A DNA stretch of 64,000 nucleotides from Thunnus maccoyii (Eukaryota > Chordata > Actinopteri > Scombriformes > Scombridae): contig NC_056544.1 in assembly GCF_910596095.1 (NCBI RefSeq), forward strand, positions 9,843,155-9,907,154. Reading direction: 5' to 3'. Made by a program: the position numbers and the translations under genes. The notes below the pieces were generated by a model. That model ran no database searches, was not told the DNA's origin, and was given only the letters and a program-made list of their open reading frames with translations. Below are positions 797 to 42,733 of this stretch, piece by piece; within the stretch, counting starts at the first letter, position 1, and the number at the start of each line of letters is the position of its first letter.

Positions 797-3688
797 GATC
801 TTCTACCACTTCTGACAGAGACAGTAGACCTCTATTCACAACAAGTAAATCATTCACATTCATTGCTCCTTTTACATCACTTGTATCAGACTTGTTTGGT
901 TTTTGTTTGTATTGCTTGGTGTAACTATTCAAACATATTTTCACTTGCTGACCAGTTACTGGAATGAAAAAGCTGAATTTATGGATATGAATATGAATTT
1001 ATTCAAAAGAGACCTGTAACAAAACAAGGATTGAGTTCATTTTTTTTAAATCTCTGACCCCTCAGCAACACACAACATACTGACAATCTTAAATAACTTG
1101 TTTTTTATTTCAGTTGACAATTGTGGAGACCACCCTAATGTTCCACATGGTGATGTTGTGGTAACGGAACAAATGTATTTGAAATACCAGTGTCAGAATG
1201 ATTACAAATACGAGGGACCAGAGACAGTGGTGTGTCACAACGATGGTACTTGGTCAAAACTACCCGTCTGCAAAGGTATGAACAAGTCAATACGACAACT
1301 CTTCATTTCAAAAAGTCTATCAGAGATGTTACCTGAACAATTATCCATGAGTTATTTTCTGTTAACTCTGTGCAGAGTCATCCTGTGTCCTCAATCCTGA
1401 TGAATTGGTTGGGAGAGGTTTTAAACTTTCTGGAGTTCAATACATGACGGAAGGAGGGGAGACGTTCATTTCTTGTGGTCAGGATAGTTACAGCTTGTTT
1501 CGATGCACTAATAGACAGATTAGTTTTACTGCGTGTAAGTATATAAATTAGCACTTAATATTTTAATTTACATTAATGCTTTTAGTTTCAGCCTATTTAT
1601 TGTCAGCTATCATGTATATTAACTTTCCAGCATCTGATTCACTAAAAGTATGATAGATGATGAAAAAATGTCAAAGAATACACTATAAGGGAACTTGAAC
1701 TTGAGTATTTAAAGGAGAAGCTGAGCATTATTCTATATTTTTCTAATTGTTAAGAAATCCCATGAAAAGAAAAGAACCAAAACCAACAAGTAATTGATCT
1801 TTCTTATATGTATTTGCCTGTGCTGCTGAAACTTGATATATCTTAATGCACTATGCCACACAGCTCCATTGTTGTTCAAAAACTATTACAAACACATAAT
1901 TGAGCCACAACAATGCACCTGGTGACATGTTCCTTTATTATGATGAACCTGTTCACAGTAGTTTATTTCATGTTAGTCACACATACGATGTCCTGATGCT
2001 CAATATTGCACCTAATGAAGTTATTATAACTGAGGTTCACCAACAAAGAACGTCTCACTCGATACAATTTCCTGTGCCACCTATAGGTGTGTCTATCCCC
2101 TTTCTCTCCTGTTTTTCTGTTTGTTTCAAGTTTGTTTTTATGCACTCAGACAGACTGATCTTCATAACATCACATTGTAGTTATTTTCTGTATCTGACCA
2201 TCACGGTTATGAGTTGGTCCTCAATCCATCAGACAGCGACATGTTTGATGATCGATCCATCGTTTTGGAGTCTGCTCAATCAATAGCTGTCTCTCGACCC
2301 ATTCAAAGGTCCATGTACTTCAGTGAGATATTGTCCTTTACTCCCCCATCCAGCATCAATGAAATCTCACCTTAATCCATGATCACAGATAGAGACTAAA
2401 CTGTCCATGGAAGTCCACCACTCTGTCAGACATCACACATCCAGTCAGCCTAGCTCGCCACAACTCCACTCCACCTCGCATGCCAAAGATGTCCGACTGG
2501 ACAGTTGTTCGCTTGCAGCGTGCTGTCAGGGATATGAGATTTGTTTTCAATGTAACAACAAGGCCAAACGAATCCAACTTTATAAAGACTCCATGTCCAC
2601 CTCTCAAATCCTCCCCTGCTTCCAGGTTCATTACTCCACTTCCACGCAGAACAGAGAAGAGCTGCTTCAAACCTCTTCAGCCTTCACTCGTATCTTCTCC
2701 CTTTGTGTCTAATCTGTCTCATCTCTCTTCTTCTTTCTTTCATTCCAGCATCTTTTCCTCTTTCCTTACTTCAGCCACTACTAATATTGCCCTCTTGGCT
2801 CTTTCAGCCTCCTCTCACTCCATCCATTTTCTAGTGATTTATCCTTCACCCCCCCTCCCCAATCTACACCCTCTCCTCCCCCCAAGCTCCAGGACATTTT
2901 CCTTCCCTGCCACGCCTCCCAGAACTGGCCATCCTGCGTTTCTTATTATAAAACCTATGACCAACAGCTTTTTACCTTTAGCCTCCGTCATGCCCCCCGT
3001 TCGCCCCGTTTCTCACCGTTCTGAACCATACTGCTGTTGTTTGGCTTGCAGCCTACATGGCTCCTCCGCCTACAGATCAATTTTCCAGAGCAGCAACCAG
3101 AGAGGTGAAGACCCATCGTTTGCCAGGACAGCAGCATAGTTTGTAGTAATTGCAATGATTCTGAAGTTTTTTCCACACTTGTTCCTCGTGTCACAGTCCC
3201 CACGTTTGCCCCCATAACCTCACCAAGCATCATTTATGACTCTAAATACCTCAAAAAATCTTTTCATGGAATTTGTTGACACTAAGGACAAATATAGATT
3301 AACACCAGTCTTGTCCTTAAAGAACAGAACTGATTTTCCTCTGTAGGTGCAGTCATGCAGAAAATTAGTGAATCAGACTTTAAAAAACAAAAGTTTGTGT
3401 GAATTAACCTGCCTACTAAAATATTAACTGATTTACTGCTGTTATTGGGTTATTTTTAGGTTGTACTGGTTATTATCACCAACAAGTAAGTGTTATTCTT
3501 CACTCTACTTTTCAAAGAAATAGATTATTATTATCATTAATTAATTGTTTTGTATATTCAGTATTGGATAACACTTCATTTTAACATTATTTTATCCAGC
3601 AGTTTGACAAAATTCAACAGTTAACATTTTTTATTGTCTGTGTTGTAACCAGGGACTGTGCTCGGCACGATGGCCACTTTTTGGATAA
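797..3688 (+). CDS. Factor H-related gene A, 3' part (5' exons left of window)
   Basis: These are the last exons of a complement factor H-related gene; the signal peptide and first three SCRs would lie left of base 1. The exons are the linker (797-844, Ser/Thr-rich), an SCR19-like module (1114-1275), an SCR20-like module (1376-1534), a 26-base mini exon (3460-3485) and a terminal exon (3653-3688, stop TAA). All junctions have AG/GT ends and join in frame. The SCR19-like exon has the spacing of four Cys and the Trp of sushi domains (DNCGDHP... YQC... VVCHNDGTW... PVC). The next exon has a TGGE-like 'EGGETFISC' stretch resembling 'TGESVEFVC' of human factor H SCR20. Such proteins are secreted plasma proteins that bind C3b and surface glycans. 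The last two exons add CTGYYHQQGLCSARWPLFG. If the 1534 donor is not used, the protein would instead end in CKYIN. Assignment to the factor H family is firm; the exact orthologue is not. Confidence 0.8.
1890..3240. other. Coding-like sequence of unknown origin inside the last long intron (gene A copy)
   Basis: Between the SCR20 exon and the mini exon lies about 1.35 kb with less AT than its surroundings and amino-acid composition that looks once coding. One part (1903-2090) reads like a protein segment, GDMFLYYDEPVHSSLFHV, and ends at a GT donor-like site. A second part (about 2480-3139, + strand) holds a Ser/Pro-rich open frame beginning MPKMSDWTVVRLQRAVRDMR. I do not recognise the family. 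It may be a decayed host gene fragment or an old mobile element. It is absent from the matching introns of genes D and E. Confidence 0.35.
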
Positions 3689-5753: not shown

Positions 5754-8700
5754 ATGTGCATCAGTTATCTTGGATTTGTTCTTCTGATCTGGTTTCCTGG
5801 AGCGCTACATGGTAAGAATATTGAATACTGTCACATACAACCATTTACATTTGTTAAAAACAAACTTTCTGTAGAATAATTGTGCTTTCTATTTCATTCT
5901 AGGACAAAGCGCACCACAGTCCTGCAGTGCTCCCAGCCTGGATGGTGGTTTCTTCGCCCCAAAGCAAGAGACTTATCCTCATGGAGCACAGCTGGCCTAT
6001 ACCTGTGGTACTGGACGTAAAGCAACAGTGAAGGGATGGTGGGCAACAAGCACATGTCAAAATGGCAAATGGTCTCATGAACTACAATGTATAGGTAGGT
6101 GTTTCCTAAATATATCTACTGTTGTGCGGCTCTATGGCAATGTCAGTCTGTCATTGGGTCCACTATTTCGGTCCAGACTCAGAAATCTCAGCAACTTTAG
6201 ATGCGTTACAATGAAATTCTGTACTGTTCATGGTTCCCAGAGGATGAATCCTTAATGACTCTGATTCCCTGAGTTTTCCCTCCAGTGCCACCATGAGGCC
6301 CACATTTGTGTGCTTGAGTGAAATGTCTCAACACTTTCTTGGATGCATTGTCATGACATTTTGTGCACACATTCATATCTCATAAAAAGTAAAAAGTAAA
6401 AAGTATCTAGAAAAAGTTTCCTGATGACATCAGCACGTTCAGTGTTCTTCTTGGTAAAATTGAGAGTGAGCTTCAACTGTATCAAAAGCTCTAAAACTTA
6501 AACATTTCAATCTTTCACAGTTTTTCAAGTATAAAATGTCTTTCATGAGCAATAGTCAGACGACTTTATCAACCTCTTATAAAAAAGACATGAAACAAAA
6601 CATATAAAAATATTGAATAATGTTTACTGACACTGGTTGTTTAGAAAATTAAAGAGCAAGTCATTTAAATTTATAATATGTAAATATTCTGCATGAAAAT
6701 GTCAAAAACAACTAGATCTATGTTATATATATGTTATATTTGTTGAGTTGTGTACTTACATTTTCCCAAATTTTTCCAACAATTTTCAAATCCAGAGAAA
6801 TCTGTCATTTTAATCAAGGTAACGGTCGCCTGTCAATGACATCACACCCCCTCTACCAAAGAGTTGTGCGCGTATACTCTTGACGCGTTGTGGTTGTTTG
6901 ACAAAAACTGTTATAAATTGACTTTTTTTCAGTTTTAAGCCACATTATCATGATAAACTTTTAAGATCTTGGTCGTTTTTAACTATATCATTTATCATCA
7001 GACGTCTCGATCTCAAGGTATCAGAGAAACAAGCTGAGCAAATGTTAATAGCATCTCAGCTAACAGCCCCTTCCGGACATCCGGTGCCAGCCAAACAGCG
7101 TCAGAGCAACATTGATTTTTATCATGAAACTGCTTTATTCACTGTCTTTACCTTTTTAATCACTGGGTCCATTTCATCTTGGAGAGGAGGAGACCTCTGC
7201 AGATAATTCAGCGTCTAGTAAAAACATCCTGATCGATGAACACTGAAGGAATCATAACCTGAAGAATCTGGTTGTTTAAAAATGAAGACAACAACTTCCA
7301 TGATCCCACGATACTGCACACCTTCATCACACTCCATCTTTGTTATTGTTTTGACTGAGAGACCCCTAGTGACTGAAATTACATATTGTGCGTTTAATGC
7401 AATAAACCTCTATAATGACATTTATTGGTACTATGCTAGTTTCAAAATGGGGTTCCAAACATGGGGTTTGGGACACCCGCAAGAGTCATGAGATGAATCT
7501 AAGCAGTCGCCAGTAGAGAATAAAAAAAAAAAATTGTTTTATTTTTCAGACTTTTGACTGTAATGTTTGCTTCTATATCATGAAAATCTGTATAGTTTAA
7601 CATCTTTAGGCCTCTGAAACAGATAAGGGAACATCACTCTTAAATTGACTGTTCTCAACTTGTGATGAGGGGTTGCAAGTAGATATCACTTCACATTTAG
7701 AAAGTATCTATATTATACATTTATAAAAACGGTTCTGTAAAAATGTTGACTATAGTTTTGTTCTTTTTTTCATCAGATGAAAAAGCCTGCATTCCACCAA
7801 CTATCCCCAATGCAAAATACACTGAAAACTCAAATGGTTGGTATGAAGAAGGACACATAATAAGAATAACATGTGACAAAGGATATCAAGATAAAAACCA
7901 GGATGCCACCGCTGAATGTATAAATGGAACATGGTCCTCTGTGCCGGTCTGTGAGAGTAAGTCTGTGAGATGTGTTACTCAAGTTAGTTGTGAAAACATA
8001 ATTACAGTAACCACAATAATATCTGTGTCTAAATCTGAAACCTATCTCATACATCTGGACAACTTTTCCTCTTCTAAGTTATGATATATTTGTTTATTTT
8101 TACAGAAAGTATCCAAGCATGCGGTGCGCCTCCTAAAATCCCCCACGCAGTAATCATTAATCAGGAATACCAGGATGTGTTTGCTGCAGATTCAGAAGTC
8201 AAGTATGAATGTGAAGATGGATTTACTGTAGAAGGAGCAGACACCAAAAAAACCATCATTTGTATTGCTGGAAACTGGACTACAGGCCCACCGTGCAGTA
8301 AGTGGACAATATTGAGATATGCAGTAATGGAGATACGTTGTATTGTTGTAATAACTACTATTTTAACTAATTAAATTCAAACTTTGTTAAGGACACAGCT
8401 CACGGGGGTCCATAGAACAATAAAATACAATAAGACATAAAATAAATATATTTTAATATAGATGTCATGATCAATGGTAGTAGGTTGATTTTAACTTGCA
8501 ATTTACAGTGGTCCATGTTACTCAGTAAAACACTGGAAAATGTATAATTCAGATTTTGGAATTGTTTGAAATGTTGTATCTATGGCCTATTGGGCAGAAA
8601 AATAAATATAACAAAGACAGTAAGAAAATCTGAGTATTTATGTCTATTCTTGCCTTTTATTGCCTAAAGGATCTAAGCGCCAGACTCAACTTGTATCTGA

Positions 8701-11700
8701 TTGGTCGGCGGGCCTGCTCTCACCCATCATCACATCTGCTTTCATTGATCTGATGAAAAAAGAATACAATTTTAGAAAATTTAATTTAATTTTCCGATAA
8801 TGTATTATTGTTTTTTGTGTGAGAAAATTAACTGTGAAACATTATATGGACCTATTTTAACGATCTAAAGCTCACGGTCTGAAGCACACGGCGCAGGTAG
8901 ATTTAGGGTGTGTCCAAATCCTCATGCTCAGTCATGGAGTAACAGGTAAAATCAGCTTGGTTTTAATTGCTGAAAGTATGGAAACCTGATCACTGTACTC
9001 TCAAAAATGTTAAAGAATATTTGTCAAATATTGTTCAAAAAACAAATAATTAATTTTAATCATGTAAAGAATCATTAACACAGTTCTCAGGACTAGATCA
9101 GCTCTCCAAGGTGCTGATCCTGCTGCTGGCAGCAGCTAGAAGCTGTCCAGAGTTCTTTCCTCCTTTCGTTTAATCATCGTTTTCATCTCATGTGTTCCTC
9201 ATGTCATCAGGTATTGATGCAGCAGGAAAGTAGATCTGTGTCTGATCCTTTGTTGTCCGTCTGTTTAATACGTGCGTGTATTGCCACGATTTGGTCAAAT
9301 AATTAGACAATTTTATCCGTCATTACTAACCATTATGACATGTATTTTTTAAAATATGTTGACATACACAATAATAATCTTTCATGTTGTAAATCTTTTA
9401 TTGTAATCTTTTGAATGTATGTGCGCTGCTGCTTGTCCGTGTGTGTGTAACAAGCAGAGCGTTTGTTGACAGACATCACTCTGGATCAGATAGAAATGGA
9501 TGCCAAATAACATCCCAAAGTCAGACTAACTGGTGTGTCTTCTGTATAAGTATATATGCTCTGTTTCTTTCAGGATCTTCTACCACTTCTGACAGAGACA
9601 GTAGACCTCTATTCACAACAAGTAAATCATTCACATTCATTGCTCCTTTTACATCACTTGTATCAGACTTGTTTGGTTTTTGTTTGTATTGCTTGGTGTA
9701 ACTATTCAAATATATTTTCACTTGCTGACCAGTTACTGGAATGAAAAAGCTGAATTTATGGATATGAATATGAATTTATTCAAAAGAGACCTGTAACAAA
9801 ACAAGGATTGAGTTCATTTTTTTAAGTCTCTGACCCCTCAGCAACACACAACATACTGACAATCTTAAATAACTTGTTTTTTATTTCAGTCGACAATTGT
9901 GGAGACCACCCGAGTGTTCCACATGGTGATGTTGTGGTAAAGGAACAAATTTATTTGAAATACCAGTGTCAGAAGTATTACAAAAGGGAGGGACCAGAGA
10001 CAGTGGTGTGTCACAACGATGGTACTTGGTCAAAACTACCCGTCTGCAAAGGTATGAACAAGTCAGTACGACAACTCTTCATTTCAAAAAGTCTATCAGA
10101 GATGTTACCTGAACAATTATCCATGAGTTATTTTCTGTTAACTCTGTGCAGAATCGTTCTGTGTCATCGATCCTGATGAATTGGTTGGGAGAGGTTTTGA
10201 CTTTGACTTTTTAACTTTGTTAAGGACACAGCTCACGGGGGTCCATAGAACAATAAAATACAATAAGACATAAAATAAATATATTTTAATATAGATGTCA
10301 TGATCAATGGTTGTAGGTTGATTTTAACTTGCAATTTACAGTGGTCCATGTTACTCAGTAAAACACTGGAAAATGTATAATTCAGATTTTGGAATTGTTT
10401 GAAATGTTGTATCTATGGCCTATTGGGCAGAAAAATAAATATAACAAAGACGGTTAGAAAATCTGAGTATTTATGTCTATTTCTGCCTTGGATTGCCTAA
10501 AGGATCTAAGCGCCAGACTCAACTTGTATCTGATTGGTCGGCGGGCCTGCTCTCACCCATCATCACACCTGCTTTCATTGATCTGATGAAAAAAGAATAC
10601 AATTTTAGAAAATTTAATTTAATTTTCCGATAATGTATTATTGTTTTTTGTGTGAAAAAATTAACTGTGAAACATTATATGGACCTATTTTAACGATCTA
10701 AAGCTCACGGTCTGAAGCACACGGCGCAGGTAGATTTAGGGTGTGTCCAAATCCTCATGTTCAGTCATGGAGTAACAGGTAAAATCAGCTTGGTTTTAAT
10801 TGCTGAAAGTATGGAAACCTGATCACTGTACTCTCAAAAATGTTAAAGAATATTTGTTAAATATTGTTCAAAAAACAAATAATTAATTTGAATCATGTAA
10901 AGAATCATTAACACAGTTCTCAGGACTAGATCAGCTCTCCAAGGTGTTGATCCTGCTGCTGGCAGTAGCTAGAAGCTGTCCAGAGTTCTTTCCTCCTTTC
11001 GTTTAATCATCGTTTTCATCTCATGTGTTCCTCATGTCATCAGGTATTGATGCAGCAGGAAAGTAGATCTGTGTCTGATCCTTTGTTGTCCGTCTGTTTA
11101 ATACGTGTGTGTATTGCCACGATTTGGTCAAATAATTAGACAATTTTATCCGTCATTACTAACCATTATGACATGTATTTTTTAAAATATGTTGACATAC
11201 ACAATAATAATCTTTCATGTTGTAAATCTTTTATTTGTAATCTTTTGAATGTATGTGCGCTGCTGCGTGTCCGTGTGTGTGTAACAAGCAGAGCGTTTGT
11301 TGACAGACATCACTCTGGATCAGATAGAAATGGATGCCAAATAACATCCCAAAGTCAGACTAACTGGTGTGTCTTCTGTATAAGTATATATGCTCTGTTT
11401 CTTTCAGGATCTTCTACCACTTCTGACAGAGACAGTAGACCTCTATTCACAACAAGTAAATCATTCACATTCATTGCTCCTTTTACATCACTTGTATCAG
11501 ACTTGTTTGGTTTTTGTTTGTATTGCTTGGTGTAACTATTCAAACATATTTTCACTTGCTGACCAGTTACTGGAATGAAAAAGCTGAATTTATGGATATG
11601 AATATGAATTTATTCAAAAGAGACCTGTAACAAAACAAGGATTGAGTTCATTTTTTTTAAATCTCTGACCCCTCAGCAACACACAACATACTGACAATCT

Positions 11701-14299
11701 TAAATAACTTGTTTTTTATTTCAGTTGACAATTGTGGAGACCACCCTAATGTTCCACATGGTGATGTTGTGGTAACGGAACAAATGTATTTGAAATACCA
11801 GTGTCAGAATGATTACAAATACGAGGGACCAGAGACAGTGGTGTGTCACAACGATGGTACTTGGTCAAAACTACCCGTCTGCAAAGGTATGAACAAGTCA
11901 ATACGACAACTCTTCATTTCAAAAAGTCTATCAGAGATGTTACCTGAACAATTATCCATGAGTTATTTTCTGTTAACTCTGTGCAGAGTCATCCTGTGTC
12001 CTCAATCCTGATGAATTGGTTTGGAGACGTTTTGAACTTTCTGGAGTTCAATACATGACGGAAGGAGGGGAGACGTTCATTTCTTGTGGTCGGGATCATT
12101 ACAGCCTGTTTCGATGCACTAATGGACAGATTAGTGTTACTGCGTGTAAGTATATAAATTAGCAATTTATATTTTAATTTACATTAATGCTTTTAGTTTC
12201 AGCCTATTTATTGTCAGCTATCATGTATATTAACTTTCCACCATCTGATTCACTAAAAGTATGATAGATGATGAAAAAATGTCAAAGAATACACTATAAG
12301 GGAACTTGAACTTGAGTATTTAAAGGAGAAGCTGAGCATTATTCTATATTTTTCTAATTGTTAAGAAATCCCATGAAAAGAAAAGAACCAAAACCAACAA
12401 GTAATTGATCTTTCTTATATGTATTTGTCTGTGCTGCTGAAACTTGATATATCTTATTGCTCTATGCCACACAGCTCCATTGTTGTTCAAAAACTATTAC
12501 AAACACATAATTGAGCCACAACAATGCACCTGGTGACATGTTCCTTTATTATGATGAACCTGTTCACAGTAGTTTATTTCATGTTAGTCACACATACGAT
12601 GTCCTGATGCTCAATATTGCACCTAATGAAGTTATTATAACTGAGGTTCACCAACAAAGAACGTCTCACTCGATACAATTTCCTGTGCCACCTATAGGTG
12701 TGTCTATCCCCTTTCTCTCCTGTTGGTCTGTTTGTTTCAAGTTTGTTTTTATGCACTCAGACAGACTGATCTTCATAACATCACATTGTAGTTATTTTCT
12801 GTATCTGACCATCACGGTTATGAGTTGGTCCTCAATCCATCAGACAGCGACATGTTTGATGATCGATCCATCGTTTTGGAGTCTGCTCAATCAATAGCTG
12901 TCTCTCGACCCATTCAAAGGTCCATGTACTTCAGTGAGATATTGTCCTTTACTCCCCCATCCAGCATCAATGAAATCTCACCTTAATCCATGATCACAGA
13001 TAGAGACTAAACTGTCCATGGAAGTCCACCACTCTGTCAGACATCACACATCCAGTCAGCCTAGCTCGCCACAACTCCACTCCACCTCGCATGCCAAAGA
13101 TGTCCGACTGGACAGTTGTTCGCTTGCAGCGTGCTGTCAGGGATATGAGATTTGTTTTCAATGTAACAACAAGGCCAAACGAATCCAACTTTATAAAGAC
13201 TCCATGTCCACCTCTCAAATCCTCCCCTGCTTCCAGGTTCATTACTCCACTTCCACGCAGAACAGAGAAGAGCTGCTTCAAACCTCTTCAGCCTTCACTC
13301 GTATCTTCTCCCTTTGTGTCTAATCTGTCTCATCTCTCTTCTTCTTTCTTTCATTCCAGCATCTTTTCCTCTTTCCTTACTTCAGCCACTACTAATATTG
13401 CCCTCTTGGCTCTTTCAGCCTCCTCTCACTCCATCCATTTTCTAGTGATTTATCCTTCACCCCCCCTCCCCAATCTACACCCTCTCCTCCCCCCAGACTC
13501 CAGGACATTTTCCTTCCCTGCCACGCCTCCCAGAACTGGCCAACCTGCGTTTCTTATTGTAAAATCTATGACCAACAGCTTTTTACCTTTAGCCTCCGTC
13601 ATGCCCCCCGTTCGCCCCGTTTCTCACCATTCTGAACCATACTGCTGTTGTTTGGCTTGCAGCCTACATGGCTCCTCCGCCTACAGATCAATTTTCCAGA
13701 GCAGCAACCAGAGAGGTGAAGACCCATCGTTTGCCAGGACAGCAGCATAGTTTGTAGTAATTGCAATGATTCTGAAGTTTTTTCCACACTTGTTCCTCGT
13801 GTCACAGTCCCCACGTTTGCCCCCATAACCTCACCAAGCATCATTTATGACTCTAAATACCTCAAAAAATCTTTTCATGGAATTTGTTGACACTAAGGAC
13901 AAATATAGATTAACACCAGTCTTGTCCTTAAAGAACAGAACTGATTTTCCTCTGTAGGTGCAGTCATGCAGAAAATTAGTGAATCAGACTTTAAAAAACA
14001 AAAGTTTGTGTGAATTAACCTGCCTACTAAAATATTAACTGATTTACTGCTGTTATTGGGTTATTTTTAGGTTGTACTGGTTATTATCACCAACAAGTAA
14101 GTGTTATTCTTCACTCTACTTTTCAAAGAAATAGATTATTATTATCATTAATTAATTGTTTTGTATATTCAGTATTGGATAACACTTCATTTTAACATTA
14201 TTTTATCCAGCAGTTTGACAAAATTCAACAGTTAACATTTTTTATTGTCTGTGTTGTAACCAGGGACTGTGCTCGGCACAATGGCCACTTTTTGGATAA
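5754..14299 (+). CDS. Factor H-related gene B, enlarged with an extra linker + SCR19 module
   Basis: This is a secreted complement factor H-like protein. The exons are: signal peptide (5754-5811, MCISYLGFVLLIWFPGALHG), SCR1 (5903-6094), SCR2 (7777-7956), SCR3 (8106-8297), linker (9574-9621), SCR19-like (9890-10051), second linker (11408-11455), second SCR19-like (11725-11886), SCR20-like (11987-12145), mini exon (14071-14096) and terminal exon (14264-14299). All internal exons are phase 1-1, so the chain reads through as 420 codons plus stop. The extra linker/SCR19 pair comes from a truncated 1.83-kb repeat copy, in which the SCR20 exon (from 10152) is cut and followed by intron sequence. I infer that this broken exon is skipped. 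If it were retained, the protein would end soon after it. An alternative is that B stops there and the exons from 11,408 onward belong to a headless gene; no signal-peptide exon lies between them, which favours one fused gene. Confidence 0.72.
6780..7405. mobile_element. Non-autonomous interspersed element in intron 2 of gene B
   Basis: The intron here is 1.68 kb against 0.86 kb in gene E, and the extra sequence ends with the teleost-repeat-like AAATTACATATTGTGCGTTT. The flanks (ATTTATTGGTACTATGCTAG) align again with gene E at about 37,395. No open frame of a transposase is seen. The same insert sits at about 17,390-18,010 and 26,150-26,770 in genes C and D. Boundaries are approximate and the family is not assigned. 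Confidence 0.4.
8778..10610 (+). repeat. 8.78-kb repeat, copy 2 (1.83 kb, internally deleted)
   Basis: It starts with the same boundary sequence and carries the linker and SCR19 exons. It jumps near 10,200 from inside the SCR20 exon to the intron after SCR3, and ends where copy 3 begins. About 6.9 kb of the full unit is absent. All of it lies within gene B. Confidence 0.9.
10152..10210 (+). pseudogene. Truncated SCR20 exon in the partial repeat copy
   Basis: The exon opens with a normal acceptor (TGCAG at 10147-10151) and reads ESFCVIDPDELVGRGF, like the first third of the SCR20 exon of genes A and C. It then runs into the intron sequence that normally follows the SCR3 exon (AACTTTGTTAAGGACACAG). 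Three of the four SCR cysteines and the donor site are gone, so it cannot encode a folded module. It marks the deletion or unequal-crossover joint that made the 1.83-kb repeat copy inside gene B. Confidence 0.75.
12501..13851. other. Coding-like sequence of unknown origin, gene B copy
   Basis: This is the second copy, in the intron between 12145 and 14071, near-identical to the gene A copy. It arose with the 8.78-kb repeat and not by a separate insertion. Confidence 0.35.
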
Positions 14300-14537
14300 T
14301 TCATCACCAACTGACATCAAAAATCAAGTTGGAAACTTTTGAAATATTTCCACCAGAAAACAACTGCACCCAAAAAAAATTGTATTTGATTTTTTTCAAA
14401 CACGTTATTGATGTTTTTTCATTTTGAATTAAAATATATAAACACAGTGTTAAAGCAGATTGTTCTGAGACTATCAGCTGTAACGTACGACTGGAGCTCT
14501 AACACACTAATAATATGATCAATACTTTAAATACATA

Positions 14538-14543
14538 AATAAA
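14538..14543 (+). terminator. Polyadenylation signal, gene B
   Basis: AATAAA about 240 bases after the gene B stop, same place as in gene A. Confidence 0.5.
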
Positions 14544-16364
14544 ATGTTTATGACCTACAATTGTCTGAATAAAATTCTCCATAGAAATTTAAACACAGAC
14601 TTTTGTATTATTTTGTCTACAAACTGTGTACAACAGTCATGCCAGTAAATATGGATATATCAGTAAGTATTGTTCTTCTTATATTTATATATGTGAGGCA
14701 GCATCACTGCAGAGTATGCAGACACTTGGACAGACAGACTCACAAAGTTGTTCAAAGTAGTTTAAAACAGAAAGCACAGCTGTCCAAAAACAATTTACAG
14801 TCTGTCTGGTTTTCCATATAAAACCATGTGTGACGTTGTGAACGGAGAATGTGGTGACCGCTGGACCTCAAAAATGTCAATTCAACTTAAATGAGACACA
14901 ATCTCTCCTTGATGACATATTTGTATTTGATTACTTAAAGATCTTCCCCCAAACATGTTTTAAGACAAATAAAAATACTCTGCTCTTAATAATTGTGTCT
15001 GATATGATTTTTCCACAAACATCCAAGTAATTAAAGTTCTTAAAGTTACATCTCCTCCTTCATCCTTTATTACAAAAATCCACAATTTATGAAAATTATT
15101 CAAGCACATTCCTCCATGAAGTTGCAGCTATTCTCCTAAAATGAGGACTAATAATTGGAATGATGTGATAAAATGATCTCATTATCTCAAAAAAAATATT
15201 TGTTTAGTCAGTCTTTTGATCCAGAAGAGTGCAACTTGTCATTGAATCACATAGTTCAGTCTCATAAACTCGGACCAGATGGAGGTAACTCACTCATGCT
15301 GTACGTGAGATGATGAATGTGAATATTTGAAGGTTTAGTCTACATAAAATTCCATAAACCTTTCATTACTTCACTCAAGCAAAGTATTTGCTCTAGTTGA
15401 GTCTCATTCTCACATACAGTAACTGTAGAACATCGATGGGGATCTGAGCATCCATCTCCTCAGATGGGTATTGAATGTGTGTGAAGTTCTCAGAAGCAAC
15501 TGATGGCAAAAATGTGTTTTTAGATATTCTGTTAATCCAGGAAATAGTGAGGATCAGCTTGATAAATAGTTTGATCAGGGCAGGCACAAGACTGACCTCT
15601 GATCACACCAATCCAGTAAATCCTTTTGAAATTTGGACTTTAAATAATCAAATTGATTTTTGTTCAGAGCTCTCTAGCAGGTGATCTGTATGGTAGTGTG
15701 GTTGCTTCACTCTAGTGACAAATGAATCGTTGTCACAGGCCTTTCTGAGACAGATTAACAAATGTGGAATTAATACAATAAATACAAAAAGTGTGCTGCT
15801 CTTTGAAGTAAATAATATGACATTAAATGAATAGATTTACTGAACTCTATCATCTGAAGTCAGGAATCATTACTGATCACAAAACTGTTCTGTGATGTAA
15901 AACAAAATCATGTTTGTTAGGAAGCTCATGTAAACAAGATACTCTTGTAAAAGTGACTGATCTGAATCTACAGTGTTTCAAACATTGTCTTTCTCATAAC
16001 AACAATCATTTGAATTTCTTAAGTAATTTTAACAAAAGTGCTGATGTAAAGCCAAGACTTTCTGTATGCTTCAGAAGAAGAAAGATTCAACTAAGTGTGT
16101 ATAATGATACTGATTTAATAAACCTATAATGTATAAAATGTAACTTAGTGTATATGTGTGTTTTTTCTCCTTTTCTGTATGTGGAGGTTTGTCCAAGTAG
16201 CCTATTTTCCCAACTTTGTTTACGATCCAGCGTAACAGCATGATGTCTGACTGTTTACTCCACAAACATTTTGGGGGGAAAGTCCTAAACAATAATTAAC
16301 TGATTTGGATCTGAACTAGACTCTTAGCTCCAATTTTTCATGGGATGATTTCACTCCTGACAAA

Positions 16365-19300
16365 ATGTGCATCAGTTATCTTGGATTTGTTCTTCTGATC
16401 TGGTTTCCTGGAGCGCTACATGGTAAGAACATTGAATACTGTCACATACAACCATTTACATTTGTTAAAAACAAACTTTCTGTAGAATAATTGTGCTTTC
16501 TATTTCATTCTAGGACAAAGCGCACCACAGTCCTGCAGTGCTCCAACTCTGGATGGTGGTTTCTTCGCCCCAAAGCAAGAGACTTATCCTCATGGAGCAC
16601 AGCTGGCCTATACCTGTGGTACTGGACGTAAAGCAACAGTGAAGGGATGGTGGGCAACAAGCACATGTCAAAATGGCAAATGGTCTCATGAACTACAATG
16701 TATAGGTAGGTGTTTCCTAAATATCTCTACTGTTGTGCGGCTCTATGGCAATGTCAGTCTGTCATTGGGTCCACTATTTCGGTCCAGACTCAGAAATCTC
16801 AGCAACTTTAGATGCGTTACAATGAAATTCTGTACTGTTCATGGTTCCCAGAGGATGAATCCTTAATGACTCTGATTCCCTGAGTTCTCCCTCCAGTGCC
16901 ACCATGAGGTCCACATTTGTGTGCTTGAGTGAAATGTCTCAACACTTTCTTGGATGCATTGTCATGACATTTTGTGCACACATTCATATCTCATAAAAAG
17001 TAAAAAGTATCTAGAAAAAGTTTCCTGATGACATCAGCACGTTCAGTGTTCTTCTTGGTAAAATTGAGAGTGAGCTTCAACTGTATCAAAAGCTCTAAAA
17101 CTTAAACATTTCAATCTTTCACAGTTTTTCAAGTATAAAATGTCTTTCATGAGCAATAGTCAGACGACTTTATCAACCTCTTATAAAAAAGACATGAAAC
17201 AAAACATATAAAAATATTGAATAATGTTTACTGAAACACTGGTTGTTTAGAAAATAAAAGAGCATTTAAATTTATAATATGTAAATATTCTGCATGAAAA
17301 TGTCAAAAACAACTAGATCTATGTTATATATATGTTATATTTGTTGAGTTGTGTACTTACATTTTCCCAAATTTTTCCAACAATTTTCAAATCCAGAGAA
17401 ATCTGTCATTTTAATCAAGGTAACGGTCCGCTTCATTTGGTCGCCTGTCAATGACATCACACCCCCTCTACCAAAGAGTTGTGCGCGTATACTCTTGACG
17501 CGTTGTGGTTGTTTGACAAAAACTGTTATAAATTGACTTTTTTTCAGTTTTAAGCCACATTATCATGATAAACTTTTAAGATCTTGGTCGTTTTTAACTA
17601 TATCATTTATCATCAGACGTCTCGATCTCAAGGTATCAGAGAAACAAGCTGAGCAAATGTTAATAGCATCTCAGCTAACAGCCCCTTCCGGACATCCGGT
17701 GCCAGCCAAACAGCGTCAGAGCAACATTGATTTTTATCATGAAACTGCTTTATTCACTGTCTTTACCTTTTTAATCACCGGGGCCATTTCGTTTTGGAGA
17801 GGAGGAGACCTCTGCAGATAATTCAGCGTCTAGTAAAAACATCCTGATCGATGAACACTGAAGGAATCATAACCTGAAGAATCTGGTTGTTTAAAAATGA
17901 AGACAACAACTTCCATGATCCCACGATACTGCACACCTTCATCACACTCCATCTTTGTTATTGTTTTGACTGAGAGACCCCTAGCGACTGAAATTACATA
18001 TTGTGCGTTTAATGCAATAAACCTCTATAATGACATTTATTGGTACTATGCTAGTTTCAAAATGGGGTTCCAAACATGGGGTTTGGGACACCCGCAAGAG
18101 TCATGAGATGAATCTAAGCAGTCGCCAGTAGAGAATAAAAAAAAAAAATTGTTTTATTTTTCAGACTTTTGACTGTAATGTTTGCGTCTATATCATGAAA
18201 ATCTGTATAGTTTAACATCTTTAGGCCTCTGAAACAGATAAGGGAACATCACTCTTAAATTGACTGTTCTCAACTTGTGATGAGGGGTTGCAAGTAGATA
18301 TCACTTCACATTTAGAAAGTATCTATATTATACATTTATAAAAATGGTTCTGTAAAAATGTTGACTATAGTTTTGTTCTTTTTTCATCAGATGAAAAAGC
18401 CTGCATTCCACCAACTATCCCCAATGCAAAATACACTGAAAACTCAAATGGTTGGTATGAAGAAGGACACATAATAAGAATAACATGTGACAAAGGATAT
18501 CAAGATAAAAACCAGGATGCCACTGCTGAATGTATAAATGGAACATGGTCCTCTGTGCCGGTCTGTGAGAGTAAGTCTGTGAGATGTGTTACTCAAGTTA
18601 GCTGTGAAAACATAATTACAGTAACCACAATAATATCTGTGTCTAAATCTGAAACCTATCTCATACATCTGGACAACTTTTCCTCTTCTAAGTTATGATA
18701 TATTTGTTTATTTTTACAGAAAGTATCCTAGCATGCGGTGCGCCTCCTAAAATCCCCCACGCAGTAATCATTAATCAGGAATACCAGGATGTGTTTGCTG
18801 CAGATTCAGAAGTCAAGTATGAATGTGAAGATGGATTTACTGTAGAAGGAGCAGACACCAAAAAAACCATCATTTGTATTGCTGGAAGCTGGACTACAGG
18901 CCCACCGTGCAGTAAGTGGACAATATTGAGATATGCAGTAATGGAGATACGTTGTATTGTTGTAATAACTACTATTTTAACTAATTAAATTCAAACTTTG
19001 TTAAGGACACAGCTCACGGGGGTCCATAGAACAATAAAATACAATAAGACATAAAATAAATATATTTTAATATAGATGTCATGGTCAATGGTTGTAGGTT
19101 GATTTTAACTTGCAATTTACAGTGGTCCATGTTACTCAGTAAAACACTGGAAAATGTATAATTAAGATTTTGGAATTGTTTGAAATGTTGTATCTATGGC
19201 CTATTGGGCAGAAAAATAAATATAACAAAGACAGTAAGAAAATCTGAGTATTTATGTCTATTCTTGCCTTTTATTGCCTAAAGGATCTAAGCGCCAGACT

Positions 19301-22300
19301 CAACTTGTATCTGATTGGTCGGCGGGCCTGCTCTCACCCATCATCACATCTGCTTTCATTGATCTGATGAAAAAAGAATACAATTTTAGAAAATTTAATT
19401 TAATTTTCCGATAATGTATTATTGTTTTTTGTGTGAAAAAATTAACTGTGAAACATTATATGGACCTATTTTAACGATCTAAAGCTCACGGTCTGAAGCA
19501 CACGGCGCAGGTAGATTTAGGGTGTGTCCAAATCCTCATGCTCAGTCATAGAGTAACAGGTAAAATCAGCTTGGTTTTAATTGCTGAAAGTATGGAAACC
19601 TGATCACTGTGCTCTCAAAAATGTTAAAGAATATTTGTTAAATATTGTTCAAAAAACAAATAATTAATTTGAATCATGTAAAGAATCATTAACACAGTTC
19701 TCAGGACTAGATCAGCTCTCCAAGGTGCTGATCCTGCTGCTGGCAGCAGCTAGAAGCTGTCCAGAGTTCTTTCCTCCTTTCGTTTAATCATCGTTTTCAT
19801 CTCATGTGTTCCTCATGTCATCAGGTATTGATGCAGCAGGAAAGTAGATCTGTGCCTGATCCTTTGTTGTCCGTCTGTTTAATACGTGCGTGTATTGCCA
19901 CGATTTGGTCAAATAATTAGACAATTTTATCCGTCATTACTAACCATTATGACATGTATTTTTTAAAATATGTTGACATACACAATAATAATCTTTCATG
20001 TTGTAAATCTTTTATTGTAATCTTTTGAATGTATGTGCGCTGCTGCGTGTCCGTGTGTGTGTAACAAGCAGAGCGTTTGTTGACAGACATCACTCTGGAT
20101 CAGATAGAAATGGATGCCAAATAACATCCCAAAGTCAGACTAACTGGTGTGTCTTCTGTATAAGTATATATGCTCTGTTTCTTTCAGGATCTTCTACCAC
20201 TTCTGACAGAGACAGTAGACCTCTATTCACAACAAGTAAATCATTCACATTCATTGCTCCTTTTACATCACTTGTATCAGACTTGTTTGGTTTTTGTTTG
20301 TATTGCTTGGTGTAACTATTCAAACATATTTTCACTTGCTGACCAGTTACTGGAATGAAAAAGCTGAATTTATGGATATGAATATGAATTTATTCAAAAG
20401 AGACCTGTAACAAAACAAGGATTGAGTTCATTTTTTTAAGTCTCTGACCCCTCAGCAACACACAACATACTGACAATCTTAAATAACTTGTTTTTTATTT
20501 CAGTCGACAATTGTGGAGACCACCCAAGTGTTCCACATGGTGATGTTGTGGTAAAGGAACAAATTTATTTGAAATACCAGTGTCAGAAGTATTACAAAAG
20601 GGAGGGACCAGAGACAGTGGTGTGTCACAACGATGGTACTTGGTCAAAACTACCCGTCTGCAAAGGTATGAACAAGTCAATACGACAACTCTTCATTTCA
20701 AAAAGTCTATCAGAGATGTTACCTGAACAATTATCCATGAGTTATTTTCTGTTAACTCTGTGCAGAGTCATCCTGTGTCCTCAATCCTGATGAATTGGTT
20801 GGGAGAGGTTTTAAACTTTCTGGAGTTCAATACATGACGGAAGGAGGGGAGACGTTCATTTCTTGTGGTCAGGATAGTTACAGCTTGTTTCGATGCACTA
20901 ATAGACAGATTAGTTTTACTGCGTGTAAGTATATAAATTAGCACTTAATATTTTAATTTACATTAATGCTTTTAGTTTCAGCCTATTTATTGTCAGCTAT
21001 CATGTATATTAACTTTCCAGCATCTGATTCACTAAAAGTATGATAGATGATGAAAAAATGTCAAAGAATACACTATAAGGGAACTTGAACTTGAGTATTT
21101 AAAGGAGAAGCTGAGCATTATTCTATATTTTTCTAATTGTTAAGAAATACCATGAAAAGAAAAGAACCAAAACCAACAAGTAATTGATCTTTCTTATATG
21201 TATTTGTCTGTGCTGCTGAAACTTGATATATCTTATTGCTCTATGCCACACAGCTCCATTGTTGTTCAAAAACTATTACAAACACATAATTGAGCCACAA
21301 CAATGCACCTGGTGACATGTTCCTTTATTATGATGAACCTGTTCACAGTAGTTTATTTCATGTTAGTCACACATACGATGTCCTGATGCTCAATATTGCA
21401 CCTAATGAAGTTATTATAACTGAGGTTCACCAACAAAGAACGTCTCACTCGATACAATTTCCTGTGCCACCTATAGGTGTGTCTATCCCCTTTCTCTCCT
21501 GTTGGTCTGTTTGTTTCAAGTTTGTTTTTATGCACTCAGACAGACTGATCTTCATAACATCACATTGTAGTTATTTTCTGTATCTGACCATCACGGTTAT
21601 GAGTTGGTCCTCAATCCATCAGACAGCGACATGTTTGATGATCGATCCATCGTTTTGGAGTCTGCTCAATCAATAGCTGTCTCTCGACCCATTCAAAGGT
21701 CCATGTACTTCAGTGAGATATTGTCCTTTACTCCCCCATCCAGCATCAATGAAATCTCACCTTAATCCATGATCACAGATAGAGACTAAACTGTCCATGG
21801 AAGTCCACCACTCTGTCAGACATCACACATCCAGTCAGCCTAGCTCGCCACAACTCCACTCCACCTCGCATGCCAAAGATGTCCGACTGGACAGTTGTTC
21901 GCTTGCAGCGTGCTGTCAGGGATATGAGATTTGTTTTCAATGTAACAACAAGGCCAAACGAATCCAACTTTATAAAGACTCCATGTCCACCTCTCAAATC
22001 CTCCCCTGCTTCCAGGTTCATTACTCCAATTCCACGCAGAACAGAGAAGAGCTGCTTCAAACCTCTTCAGCCTTCACTCGTATCTTCTCCCTTTGTGTCT
22101 AATCTGTCTCATCTCTCTTCTTCTTTCTTTCATTCCAGCATCTTTTCCTCTTTCCTTACTTCAGCCACTACTAATATTGCCCTCTTGGCTCTTTCAGCCT
22201 CCTCTCACTCCATCCATTTTCTAGTGATTTATCCTTCACCCCCCCTCCCCAATCTACACCCTCTCCTCCCCCCAGACTCCAGGACATTTTCCTTCCCTGC

Positions 22301-28100: not shown

Positions 28101-30782
28101 TTCAAATTTTTGAAAACATGATGGTAAAATGTTTAGACATTACTCTGATTCTGGAAGAATAAGATGAAAACAGCATCTCAGTGCGATACTAACTGGTGCA
28201 TCTAATGTATCTTACAGGATCATCTGTCAGCTCCGGATCGAATGGGAGAGAGGGAGGAACTCAATTCACAACAAGTAAATCAGTACATTCATTTCTACTT
28301 TTTCATCACATAATGTTCTAATTGATCAGGATTTCTAAACAGATTAGTTGTCTTTTTAATCAATAAATTAAACCTTATATCAGTAGCTCTTATCAGCAGC
28401 CTTACTGAGTTATTCAGGGATAGATTGGGTCCATCAGTGAGGCTGGCAGTAAAAGGCTGAGAAAATCAAAAACATTTTAAATAGATTAAATACTTTGGCA
28501 GCATGAAATATTTGTTTTCAGAAACCTTTTTATTTTTCCATTTTAGTTGACAAATGTGGAAGATTCCCCCAAATTTCTGATGGAGATGTTGTGGAAAAAC
28601 ATGAAATGTCTATTAAATACCGATGCAGTTCTTTTCACAAACTCGTGGGTCGAGAGACAGTGAGATGCTACAGCAGTGGCACGTGGTCAGAAGTACCCAC
28701 CTGCAAAGGTATGAACAAGTCAACTGTTAAGCTCAAAGAAGTTGACTGGGGAATAAAGTTGCTAAATTTGTTGTTGTTTCTTTTGTGCAGACGCCTACTG
28801 TTCTGTGGACACTGCTGAAAAAGATGGCTTTCAATCTGTTGGAGTTATATTTTTAGAATATGGTGAGAGAAAGAGATTTGAATGTGAGAAACCGTACAGT
28901 TGGTCGTTTCCACATTATTCTTTTGGCCGGTGCACTAATGGAAGAATGAGCTTTACTAAATGTAAGTATCACTTTAAGCTCTTTACATTTTAATATATTA
29001 ATATTCTATAAACAGAAATACAGATATTTATATTATTATATATTATTATATTATAATATATTAATATTCCATTCATATTCCAATCATTCTGATTGGTTAG
29101 GATCCAGAAGCTTTGTCAACAAACTATGAAACAAACTGTAATAGTAGGATTTCATTACTTTTTCTTGTTCTTTACTCGAAATGTCAACTTCTCAAATACA
29201 GTGGAAACCGCTTATAGTGATCATGGTTACAGTGATCAATCAGTTATATGGATCAAAAAGCTCAGGACAGAATCATTCCTATACAAATGCTGTTTAAATA
29301 ATTTGCTTATAGTAATCAAGTAGTCCACTTACAGTGTTCATTTTGGGTCTTGTCCAGCAGTCTCCAGCTAGAGGCGGAAGTGTCGTTTAGTTTGCCGGTT
29401 AAGTAGTTTGCTGATCAGGCTCTAAATGGTTAGGTGCTCTGCCTTGAGCCCGGACAGCTCAGGATCTGTCACCATATTGTGACAATAACACAAATGTTAT
29501 TGGACCAAATGGATCAAATTCTGATAATAAAATAAGTCGTTTCCTGGGGGTTATGAGGCTCAAAAAATTGTATTCACTGTTTTACAGCTGCTCCATTTTC
29601 AATGTGTGTGGGAAAATGCTTTTTGGGCCAGTGAGCATCACATGACTGACTCAGAAGTTGTAATTATACAGTTTGGCCACTATGTCAAATTTGCTTCACA
29701 CGAGTCCTCAGGAACAGCGGCGGGCTTTGAAGCCAATTTGACATGGTGGCCAAACTGTGGAATTACAACCTTTGGGTCCAACAGGAGTACAAAAAGCATT
29801 TTTCCCGCACACAATCATGGAAAAAGGAGCGGCTGTAAAACGGTGGATACTTTTTTTTTAGCATCACAACCCCCACGAAATGATTTGTTTCACTATCAGA
29901 ATTTGATCCAGCTGAGGTCTCTAGTGAGCATGCTCTCATAGGGCCCATAGAGCGTGCACAGTATGTTTTCATCCAGCTAATTTCTTTATAGCGGGAAATG
30001 GCTTTTTTGGCTTCATGCGCCACTGAGCAACTTTTATAGGAATGAACAGGGCCCCGCCTCTGACGCTATATCCAGTTTTCTTTATACATCCATGGCTTCA
30101 CAGCCCAGTGCAGTTCCTGGGGACTTGGTTGAAGCCTGGGCTTTTGACTTGCAGGGAGCATTTCTACATATCTTTTGGAATTTTAACCATGTTTAGCACA
30201 GATATCATAACAGTATATAAATAACAGAAAATCACAAAAAGCATTATATGGCCCCTTTAAAGGAAGTTTGACATTTTAGGAAGTATTATTGTTCACTTTC
30301 TTGCTGAGAGACAGGTATTGATCTTCTCATCTAACACTCTTCAAGAAAACGAATAAGTGCATTTCCCAAAATGTTGGACTATTCTTTTATTCCACTGATT
30401 TAGCATTGCACTCCTATAACACTGTCTGACTTGAAATGGACTTCTTAAAAAATCAGAAAATCTGAATCGATGCAGCAGAACCAGAGATACAGTTCTTCTA
30501 CAATTAAAGTAAATAAGCTGTTCCACAAATTCACTGCTGTGCTTCTATATGATTGTTTCCAGGTTGTAACAGGGCTGAACATGCTGTGGTGAGTATTACT
30601 CCTGAGTCTACTTTGAAACACGCTGTACTTACACTAATGTTGTCTTCCATTTGAAGCATCACTACTATTTCTTGAACTTTTATTTACATTTATGATTATG
30701 TATTTATATATTACTTTTTTATTATCTTTTATTGGAGTTGTTAATGTTTGTAAATCCTCTATTTTGTAAACAGGGTTGCTAA
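25130..30782 (+). CDS. Factor H-related gene D, hybrid (type-1 front, type-2 C-terminus)
   Basis: The exons are: signal peptide 25130-25187 (MRISYLGF...), SCR1 25279-25470, SCR2 27152-27328 (one codon shorter, HIIITC instead of HIIRITC), SCR3 27478-27669, Ser/Gly linker 28218-28274 (SSVSSGSNGREGG), SCR19-like 28547-28708 (CGRFPQISDGDVV...), SCR20-like 28791-28961 (YCSVDTAEKDGF... ERKRFEC), mini 30563-30588 and terminal 30774-30782. They join to 347 codons plus stop. The front half is part of the fourth 8.78-kb repeat copy. From about 27,823 on, the sequence is of a second, diverged type shared with gene E. The tail after SCR20 is CCNRAEHAVGC. If the donor at 28961 is ignored, the alternative end is CKYHFKLFTF. 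A polyadenylation signal lies at 31033. This is a secreted complement regulator by family; which ligand it binds cannot be told. Confidence 0.8.
27824..27872 (+). pseudogene. Relic 3' end of a type-2 SCR3 exon (gene D)
   Basis: The stretch reads TIIYRAGKWTKGQC followed by the donor GTAAGTGG. It aligns with the end of the functional SCR3 exon (TIICIAG.W.TGPPC, same donor). The third sushi Cys is replaced by Tyr and the 5' two thirds of the exon, with its acceptor, are missing. It follows directly on type-1 repeat sequence, so it is the hybrid joint between the two gene types. Confidence 0.65.
29511..29909. repeat. Long imperfect palindrome in the last intron of gene D
   Basis: The left arm (from GGATCAAATTCTGATA) and right arm (to TATCAGAATTTGATCC) pair over roughly 190 bases each, with mismatches and small gaps and a short centre near 29,715. 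Internal paired landmarks are GTTTTACAGC.GCTCC and ACAGTTTGGCCAC.ATGTCAAATT. It looks like a fold-back or MITE-type element. A TATGGCCCCTTTAAAGG stretch near 30,247 may be part of a larger element. Confidence 0.7.
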
Positions 30783-31032
30783 GGCTGTATCACAAAGGGG
30801 AAGACAATGCTGCCTTTGGATTTATGCACAACCGACTGAAAACCAGCCTGGAAACATTAAGTTATGATCATGCTGTCACACACTGTGCTGGGCTTCTCAA
30901 GAAACATTTCTGGCTTTTCATTTTAATTGATGAATGCCTACATAATTTAGGAGCATATGGTCTGTCTGTGTGCTCAAAGCTGTGAAAATAACTTGACAGA
31001 TAAATATGGTGCATATTTGATGGACTGGCCTG

Positions 31033-31038
31033 AATAAA
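31033..31038 (+). terminator. Polyadenylation signal, gene D
   Basis: AATAAA about 250 bases after the stop, shared with gene E. Confidence 0.55.
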
Positions 31039-42420: not shown

Positions 42421-42670
42421 GGCTGTATCACAAAGGGGAAGACAATGCTGCCTTTGGATTTATGCACAACCAACTGAAAACCAGCCTGGAAACATTAAGT
42501 TATGATCATGCTGTCACACACTGTGCTGGGCTTCTCAAGAAACATTTCTGGCTTTTCATTTTAATTGATGAATGCCTACATAATTTAGGAGCATATGGTC
42601 TGTCAGTGTGCTCAAAGCTGTGAAAATAACTTGACAGATAAATATGGTGCATATTTGATGGACTGGCCTG

Positions 42671-42676
42671 AATAAA
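42671..42676 (+). terminator. Polyadenylation signal, gene E
   Basis: AATAAA about 250 bases after the stop, shared with gene D; the duplicated block ends about 57 bases further on. Confidence 0.55.
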
Positions 42677-42733
42677 ATCTTTGACTGGAATGTCAAAACT
42701 AATGTTTCTACAACTGTGTCTGCAGAGTTTTTG

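What the first reader, a model, noticed from the sequence alone, without database searches (positions are those of the whole stretch)
9890..20665. SCR19 exons differ almost only by amino-acid changes that raise positive charge
Comparing the SCR19-like exon of repeat copies 1 and 3 (1114-1275, 11725-11886) with copies 2 and 4 (9890-10051, 20504-20665), I see six residue changes in 54 codons (N to S, T to K, M to I, N to K, D to Y, Y to R) and about two silent ones. The introns on both sides are nearly unchanged. Four changes add positive charge. In human factor H this region binds C3b/C3d and polyanions, so the two versions may differ in surface recognition. This pattern fits positive selection or conversion from an unseen donor.
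Basis: partly seen in the sequence, partly recalled or inferred. Interest (0 to 1): 0.75.

Follow-up and report, generated by a model that had tools for sequence, protein, structure and literature searches.

The report
Diversified ends of fish complement-regulator genes
In what is probably a fish chromosome, a row of nearly identical factor H-like immune genes differs mostly in the last two protein modules, the part that in human factor H touches its targets, which suggests that evolution keeps these ends different while the rest is kept alike; the pattern is real, but positive selection is not proven.

Summary
At the given coordinates the two SCR19-like exon versions (A: 1114, 11725; B: 9890, 20504) differ at 10 of 162 bases, giving six amino-acid changes and two silent differences; adjacent introns differ at 1-3 of 368. 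With six copies, all 8 fixed A/B differences lie within 76 bp of the exon; none lies in 869 noncoding bases.

Two parts of the interpretation weaken. The share of amino-acid changes is what chance gives (8N:2S; about 80% of sites are nonsynonymous). And 'raising charge' is not one direction: T looks derived in A1/A2, and SCR20 shows no charge trend.

The wider pattern is stronger: the SCR20 exon differs by 5-10% in 9 of 10 gene pairs whose noncoding DNA differs by 0.4-1.1%. A second gene pair shows only a non-significant hint (p = 0.08). Site patterns conflict on both sides of the A/B block, which indicates recombination. Best reading: conversion homogenises the array while selection keeps the two C-terminal domains different, as in primate L/M opsins. 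No donor for the B block was found in the assembly.

The parts
1114..1275 (+). A1: SCR19-like exon, version A
   Evidence: 162 bp, AG/GT borders, identical to A2
9890..10051 (+). B1: SCR19-like exon, version B
11725..11886 (+). A2: SCR19-like exon, version A; all variation among the six copies lies in 11726-11822
20504..20665 (+). B2: SCR19-like exon, version B
11747..11822 (+). 76-bp core holding all 8 differences fixed between A0/A1/A2 and B0/B1/B2 (9912-9987 in B1)
   Evidence: 8 of 8 fixed sites; 0 in 869 noncoding bp
1376..1551 (+). SCR20-like last exon of A1, with stop codon; hypervariable between gene copies
11987..12162 (+). SCR20-like last exon of A2
20766..20941 (+). SCR20-like last exon of B2, identical to that of A1
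10152..10273 (+). Truncated SCR20 exon of B1: the repeat match ends at 10204 and the frame runs into the next module, giving an unrelated tail and a stop; keeps 1 of 4 cysteines
797..844 (+). Linker exon before A1 SCR19, identical in all six copies (others in the window at 9574, 11408, 20188)
   Evidence: 0 of 48 sites vary
5754..5811 (+). Signal-peptide exon (by eye) of the gene that carries B1
   Evidence: 1 of 58 sites varies
5903..6094 (+). SCRa exon of the same gene; not elevated (3 of 192)
7778..7956 (+). SCRb exon of the same gene; not elevated (4 of 179)
8106..8298 (+). SCRc exon of the same gene; 9 of 193 vary, 6 of them in one copy only
28547..28708 (+). Divergent SCR19-like exon (47% identity), used as outgroup; near twin at 40181-40342
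28791..28993 (+). SCR20-like exon of the divergent gene, four cysteines; 5 differences from its twin at 40425-40627, all amino-acid changing

Best explanation
This is a tandem array of factor H-related-like genes (signal peptide, SCRa, SCRb, SCRc, linker, SCR19, SCR20), probably in a fish. Recent duplication and gene conversion keep the noncoding DNA and most of the upstream exons about 99% alike (shown for the sequence, inferred for the process). The two C-terminal SCR exons escape this: they carry several-fold more differences than the DNA around them, in amino-acid and probably also in silent sites (shown, silent part weakly). The likely cause is selection that favours different C-terminal recognition surfaces, so that exchanges erasing the difference are lost and new amino-acid changes are kept (inferred). 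The SCR19 A/B contrast is one block of this kind: an older pair of sequence versions on a young, reshuffled background (inferred). Functionally the copies would bind C3 fragments through the same conserved contacts but differ in neighbouring surface, hence in avidity or in the surfaces recognised (inferred).
For: 8 of 8 fixed A/B sites in 76 bp of E19, none in 869 noncoding bp. E20 differs at 9-18 of 176 in 9 of 10 gene pairs with noncoding divergence 0.43-1.11%. Pooled nonsynonymous changes 25 per 263 sites against noncoding 104/7076, p = 2.6e-12; silent 4/67, p = 0.018, or 5/68 with the split codon, p = 0.0037. Internal controls not raised: linker 0/48, signal peptide 1/58, SCRa 3/192, SCRb 4/179. 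Sites that conflict with the A/B split lie on both sides of the core (11545; 11988, 11991, 11993, 12001, 12034), so modules have recombined around it; A1 and B2 share an identical SCR20 exon although they differ in SCR19. Precedent: gibbon L/M opsins, exon divergence above intron divergence through conversion and selection against it (PMC3213168, abstract).
Against: N and S rates do not differ significantly (p = 0.47). SCRc is also raised (9/193, p = 0.004), 6 of 9 sites in one copy. The last 64 bp of E19 do not vary, which fits a tract boundary as well as selection. There are only about two independent A and two B lineages, because B0-A1 and B1-A2 share one junction and so look like copies of one dimer. 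The second gene pair does not replicate the excess at the 5% level (SCR20 5/203 against 29/2746, p = 0.08), and its SCR19 exons differ only at one silent base. No second species, no polymorphism and no expression data.
Confidence: 0.52

Rival explanations
1. One short ectopic conversion copied a diverged sequence from an unseen donor into the ancestor of B (or of A), without selection; the block then spread with the dimer duplication.
For: Sharp block inside the exon, ending mid-exon at 11822; A0 and B2 differ at 3 of 867 noncoding bp but 8 of 162 exon bp; silent sites also raised.
Against: No donor in the assembly: the exon DNA search returned 6 copies only, and the exact 21-base B stretch is found only in B0, B1 and B2; matches with up to 3 mismatches number 27 including these 3, against 82 for the reversed pattern. 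It does not explain the separate excess in SCR20, with low variation in the 100-bp intron between (2 variable positions).
Confidence: 0.27
2. Recent positive selection alone: new amino-acid substitutions fixed one after another in B and in SCR20, on a background that is simply young.
For: Nonsynonymous rate 6.5 times the noncoding rate, more than relaxed constraint can give.
Against: dN/dS about 1.7-2.0 for A/B, not significant; silent sites seem raised as well; one codon needs three base changes; the outgroup suggests that not all changes are on the B side.
Confidence: 0.12
3. Clustered mutation: one or two multi-nucleotide or template-switch events made 5 of the 8 fixed differences (TG to GT and TAC to AGG within 13 bp).
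For: Spacing of the changes.
Against: No local template in 94 kb: the longest match elsewhere that spans two or more B-specific sites is 10 bases, and the A sequence gives 11 as a control. It does not explain the other three sites or SCR20. Transition:transversion 14:16 in the two exons against 63:42 in noncoding, p = 0.21.
Confidence: 0.05
4. Assembly artefact (collapsed or falsely duplicated haplotypes).
For: Units about 99% identical in one contig; no reads available.
Against: A and B states recur in three copies each, with different flanks; SCR19 frames are open in all six copies.
Confidence: 0.03

Closest known systems
Primate L/M opsin gene pair (PMC3213168, abstract read)
   Same: Tandem duplicates with exon divergence above intron divergence, and exon and intron phylogenies that disagree; the authors propose conversion plus selection against homogenisation.
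   Different: Here several immune-type genes and two terminal exons; nonsynonymous sites exceed noncoding 6.5 times; selection is not demonstrated.
Human CFH/CFHR1-5 cluster and hybrid CFH/CFHL1 genes (PMC1626556, start of abstract seen in a search listing; details of SCR19/20 exchange recalled)
   Same: Tandem SCR genes of high sequence identity that rearrange; E19 aligns best to factor H SCR19.
   Different: Here five SCRs and a linker exon; the SCR20-like exon is not recognised by Pfam; two genes seem to carry B and A SCR19 in series.
Teleost cfh family expansion (PMC7768046, abstract and sections 17 and 24 read)
   Same: Species-specific cfh duplication in teleosts, tandem in some.
   Different: The parts read give gene numbers (two to six in teleosts) and linkage, not exon-limited divergence or conversion.

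Membership tests
Factor H / factor H-related (SCR) proteins | Sushi/SCR domains in separate exons | tested here: met
   Pfam Sushi over cut-off for E19 A and B, SCRc, SCRa and the outgroup E19; SCRb by a profile built here
Factor H / factor H-related (SCR) proteins | A domain homologous to SCR19 near the C-terminus | tested here: met
   Of 18 stretches matched in human factor H, SCR19 scores highest, 21.9 bits
Factor H / factor H-related (SCR) proteins | Last domain homologous to SCR20 | tested here: inconclusive
   Four cysteines and terminal position, but no Pfam match, and the phmmer alignments to factor H SCR19-20 constructs end soon after SCR19
Factor H / factor H-related (SCR) proteins | Binds C3b/C3d and polyanions | not testable with these tools
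   Inference only: the equivalents of D1119, Q1139 and Y1142 are kept in A and B
Positive selection on codons | dN significantly above dS | tested here: not met
   E19+E20: N 25/263, S 4/67, Fisher p = 0.47
Concerted evolution with protected exons (opsin type) | Exon divergence above intron divergence | tested here: met
   not at the 5% level in the second gene pair
Concerted evolution with protected exons (opsin type) | Silent divergence in the exons above intron divergence | tested here: inconclusive
   4/67 or 5/68 against 104/7076, p = 0.018 or 0.0037, very few sites
Concerted evolution with protected exons (opsin type) | Exon and flank partitions disagree (recombination) | tested here: met
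   Incompatible sites on both sides of the core; identical E20 in A1 and B2; on the left side one site only
Concerted evolution with protected exons (opsin type) | Pattern kept across species | not tested
   No collection of other fish genomes is offered by the tools; no search was run for one

The most novel reading that the evidence does not exclude
The array works as a diversity store for complement recognition: a homogenised scaffold on which short SCR19 and SCR20 cassettes are diversified and reshuffled between genes by micro-conversion, and two genes offer a B and an A SCR19 in series (or by alternative splicing). The animal would then hold a small set of factor H-related proteins with the same C3 contact but different surface specificities, driven by microbes that capture factor H or mimic its ligands.
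Probability: 0.2. Interest if true: 0.75.

Novelty: new member of a known kind. Interest (0 to 1): 0.47.

Why it matters
The C-terminal end of human factor H is a point of conflict with microbes: seven microbes studied in PMC3630169 (passages) bind it at a common site on domain 20. An array with about 99% identical scaffolds and different C-terminal ends is a clean natural test of that conflict: the homogenised DNA gives an internal clock, and recombinant A and B ends can be compared side by side for C3d, heparin and sialic-acid binding. It also warns that a high share of amino-acid changes in a short exon is not by itself evidence of selection.

Tried and rejected
Rejected: relaxed constraint or decay as the sole cause, because nonsynonymous change exceeds the noncoding rate 6.5 times and, apart from the truncated SCR20 of B0 and B1, the SCR exons translated are open. 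Rejected: a local template for the B stretch. Not supported: a different mutation spectrum (p = 0.21). Rejected: a one-way rise in charge; the simulated chance of net +4 or more in six random changes is 0.035 one-sided, 0.043 two-sided, but the comparison was chosen after seeing the data and one of the six changes is not a fixed A/B difference.

Mended on re-check: one search gave p = 0.03 for the second gene pair with an exon length of 165 entered by hand; the exon is 203 bases with its stop codon and the value is 0.08. The pooled noncoding count (105/7135) counted 59 bases twice; without them it is 104/7076 with the same p values to two figures. I lowered the best explanation from 0.55 to 0.52 and raised the conversion rival from 0.25 to 0.27 for the first of these.

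Led nowhere: structure prediction (not accepted); paper searches (0 papers; 1 paper, not on point); one search printed mostly gap columns and was replaced.

Not done: maximum-likelihood trees, codon-model tests, solvent exposure, scans of the viral, metagenome or prokaryote collections, a check of other SCR gene arrays of this genome as a control.
Full report
What was checked. Aligning the modules confirms ten A/B differences in the exon. Six codons change the residue (N to S, T to K, M to I, N to K, D to Y, Y to R) and two differences are silent.

Where it is. The window lies at contig 12, 9843155-9907154, of a 782-Mb genome held without a name. That it is a fish is my inference from the exon-intron genes, the genome size and the kind of gene; no call names the organism. 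Searching that genome with the exon gives six close copies, all in this array: A0 and B0 upstream of the window, then A1, B1, A2 and B2. Two relatives at 47% identity lie in the window at 28549 and 40183. Exons with EGF-like domains (Pfam) at 55-59 kb may be crb1, a gene that PMC7768046 links to teleost cfha (section 24); I did not verify that identity.

Gene anatomy. Each repeat unit holds a gene: signal peptide, SCRa, SCRb, SCRc, a 48-bp linker exon, SCR19 and SCR20 with the stop codon (from sequence only, no transcript). A0 and B2 are each followed by a full SCR20. B0 and B1 are not: the repeat match breaks inside SCR20 (at 10204 for B1) and the next A module begins a few bases later. The SCR20 frame of B0 and B1 runs into unrelated sequence and stops. 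The genes with B0 and B1 therefore either end in a short tail or splice on to the A module and carry SCR19-B and SCR19-A in series; this is inferred from order and phase. It also means that 'copies 1 and 3' and 'copies 2 and 4' are two slots of a duplicated dimer, not four independent genes.

Exon against intron. In the six-copy module, 869 noncoding bases have 10 positions with more than one base and none that separates all A from all B (columns with gaps left out of the fixed count). The 162-bp SCR19 exon has 10 variable positions, 8 of them fixed between A and B, all 8 inside 76 bp. The linker has none in 48. In all nine A/B pairs the adjacent introns differ at 1-3 of 368 bp and the exon at 8-10 of 162. 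So the contrast is not chance, with the caution that five of the eight fixed sites fall in 13 bp and may be two events.

The larger pattern. The five full SCR20 exons (those of B0 and B1 are truncated and left out) have 21 variable positions in 176 bases, against 95 in 6266 noncoding bases of the same alignment, p = 3e-12. Pair by pair, SCR20 differs at 9-18 of 176 in 9 of 10 pairs, with noncoding divergence of 0.43-1.11%; the tenth pair, A1 and B2, is identical in SCR20. SCRa, SCRb and the signal peptide are not raised. SCRc is (9 of 193, p = 0.004), with 6 of the 9 sites in one copy only.

A second gene pair. The two divergent genes at 27986-31096 and 39620-42734 differ at 35 bases plus a 4-base gap. 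Five fall in the SCR20 exon, and all five change the residue. Against 29 in 2746 other bases this is 5 in 203, p = 0.08; an earlier value of 0.03 used too short an exon length. Their SCR19 exons differ only at one silent base. This is a hint at most for SCR20, and no support for SCR19.

Selection test. SCR19 has 8 nonsynonymous and 2 silent changes by codon tree, SCR20 17 and 2 (the split first codon, one more silent change, is not in these counts). About 80% of sites are nonsynonymous, so the ratio itself is unremarkable: p = 0.47. What is remarkable is the density: nonsynonymous 9.5% of sites against 1.5% for noncoding, p = 2.6e-12; silent 6-7%, p = 0.018 or 0.0037 depending on whether the split codon is counted. 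A rate above the noncoding rate is not what relaxed constraint gives. A raised silent rate, if real, suggests that the exon versions are older than the DNA around them, as when conversion homogenises the flanks.

Recombination. Site 11545 on the left and 11988, 11991, 11993, 12001 and 12034 on the right are incompatible with the A/B split, and A1 and B2 share SCR20 while differing in SCR19. In the left flank A0 sides with B at 11108, 11651, 11661 and 11726. So modules have exchanged sequence around the SCR19 core, while the core stayed sorted. The left side rests on one incompatible site, and recurrent mutation could mimic it. This resembles the opsin pattern: exon divergence above intron divergence through conversion and selection against it (PMC3213168, abstract).

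Direction of change and charge. With the 28549 exon as outgroup, the outgroup base matches A at 11749, 11786, 11810 and 11822, matches B at 11776 and 11811, and matches neither at 11747, 11820 and 11821. The outgroup is distant (47% identity), so single sites are weak. A0 has K at the T/K site, so T is probably new in A1/A2. Net charge (K and R minus D and E) is -3 for A0, -4 for A1/A2, 0 for B and +2 for the outgroup; SCR20 variants range from -2 to 0 without a trend. So B is less negative than A, but 'changes that raise positive charge' describes a contrast, not a direction of evolution.

Position on the domain. SCR19 is the best of 18 stretches of human factor H matched by the A exon, and a mini-factor H chain aligns residue by residue. 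With that alignment, three of four residues that PMC5096715 chose for mutation at the C3d interface (Asn1117, Asp1119, Gln1139, Tyr1142; passages) are kept in both A and B (Asp, Gln, Tyr; the Asn is His in both). The changes N to K, D to Y and Y to R fall at 1140, 1141 and 1144, beside them (numbering by my own alignment). In PMC3630169 (passages) several microbes bind human domain 20 at a common site, while the domain 19 mutants D1119G, Q1139A and W1157L did not reduce microbial binding. So an effect on recognition is plausible and untested, and for microbial capture domain 20 is the likelier target.

Donor. The exact 21-base B stretch occurs only in the three B copies; matches with up to three mismatches number 27 including these three, against 82 for the reversed pattern. 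The exon DNA search returned no other locus, within that tool's stated limits. A donor may exist in another haplotype or be lost.

Verdict. I file it as a new member of a known kind: concerted evolution with protected, diversified exons, here in factor H-related-like genes. I searched the held papers for teleost factor H duplication, CFHR selection and conversion, and fish CFHR arrays, looked at the listed titles and abstract starts (20 of 113, 2 of 2, 0, 1 of 1 and 6 of 25), and saw no description of this exon-limited pattern; the library lacks most subscription journals.

Noticed in passing
L023-L024, window coordinates -27785 to -17669 (G000 contig 12, 9815369-9825485): About ten head-to-tail copies of a 1011-bp repeat, about 99% alike, sit where the upstream gene should have its linker and SCR19 exons; each holds a piece (about 370 bp) similar to the intron before the linker. 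The profile and tblastn searches found no SCR or linker exon in it.
   Followed up: partly
10152-10273, and the same junction at -458 and after, upstream of the window: SCR20 of B0 and B1 is cut by the dimer junction; the join shows repeated ACTTT words, which suggests a microhomology-type break (by eye).
   Followed up: partly
1376-1551 and 20766-20941: The SCR20 exons of A1 and B2 are identical although the other pairs differ by 9-18 bases: a likely conversion between an A and a B gene.
   Followed up: yes
28791-28993 and 40425-40627: The second, separate gene pair has 5 differences in SCR20, all amino-acid changing, but the excess is not significant (p = 0.08).
   Followed up: yes
55053-59540: EGF-like exons downstream of the array, perhaps crb1, which would mark the teleost cfha locus.
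   Followed up: partly
38616-39741: A 625-bp stretch matches itself at a 501-bp offset (98.7%) between SCRc and SCR19 of the last gene.
   Followed up: no
27160-27324 and 37768-37932: SCRb of the two downstream genes lacks one arginine codon that the array genes have.
   Followed up: no
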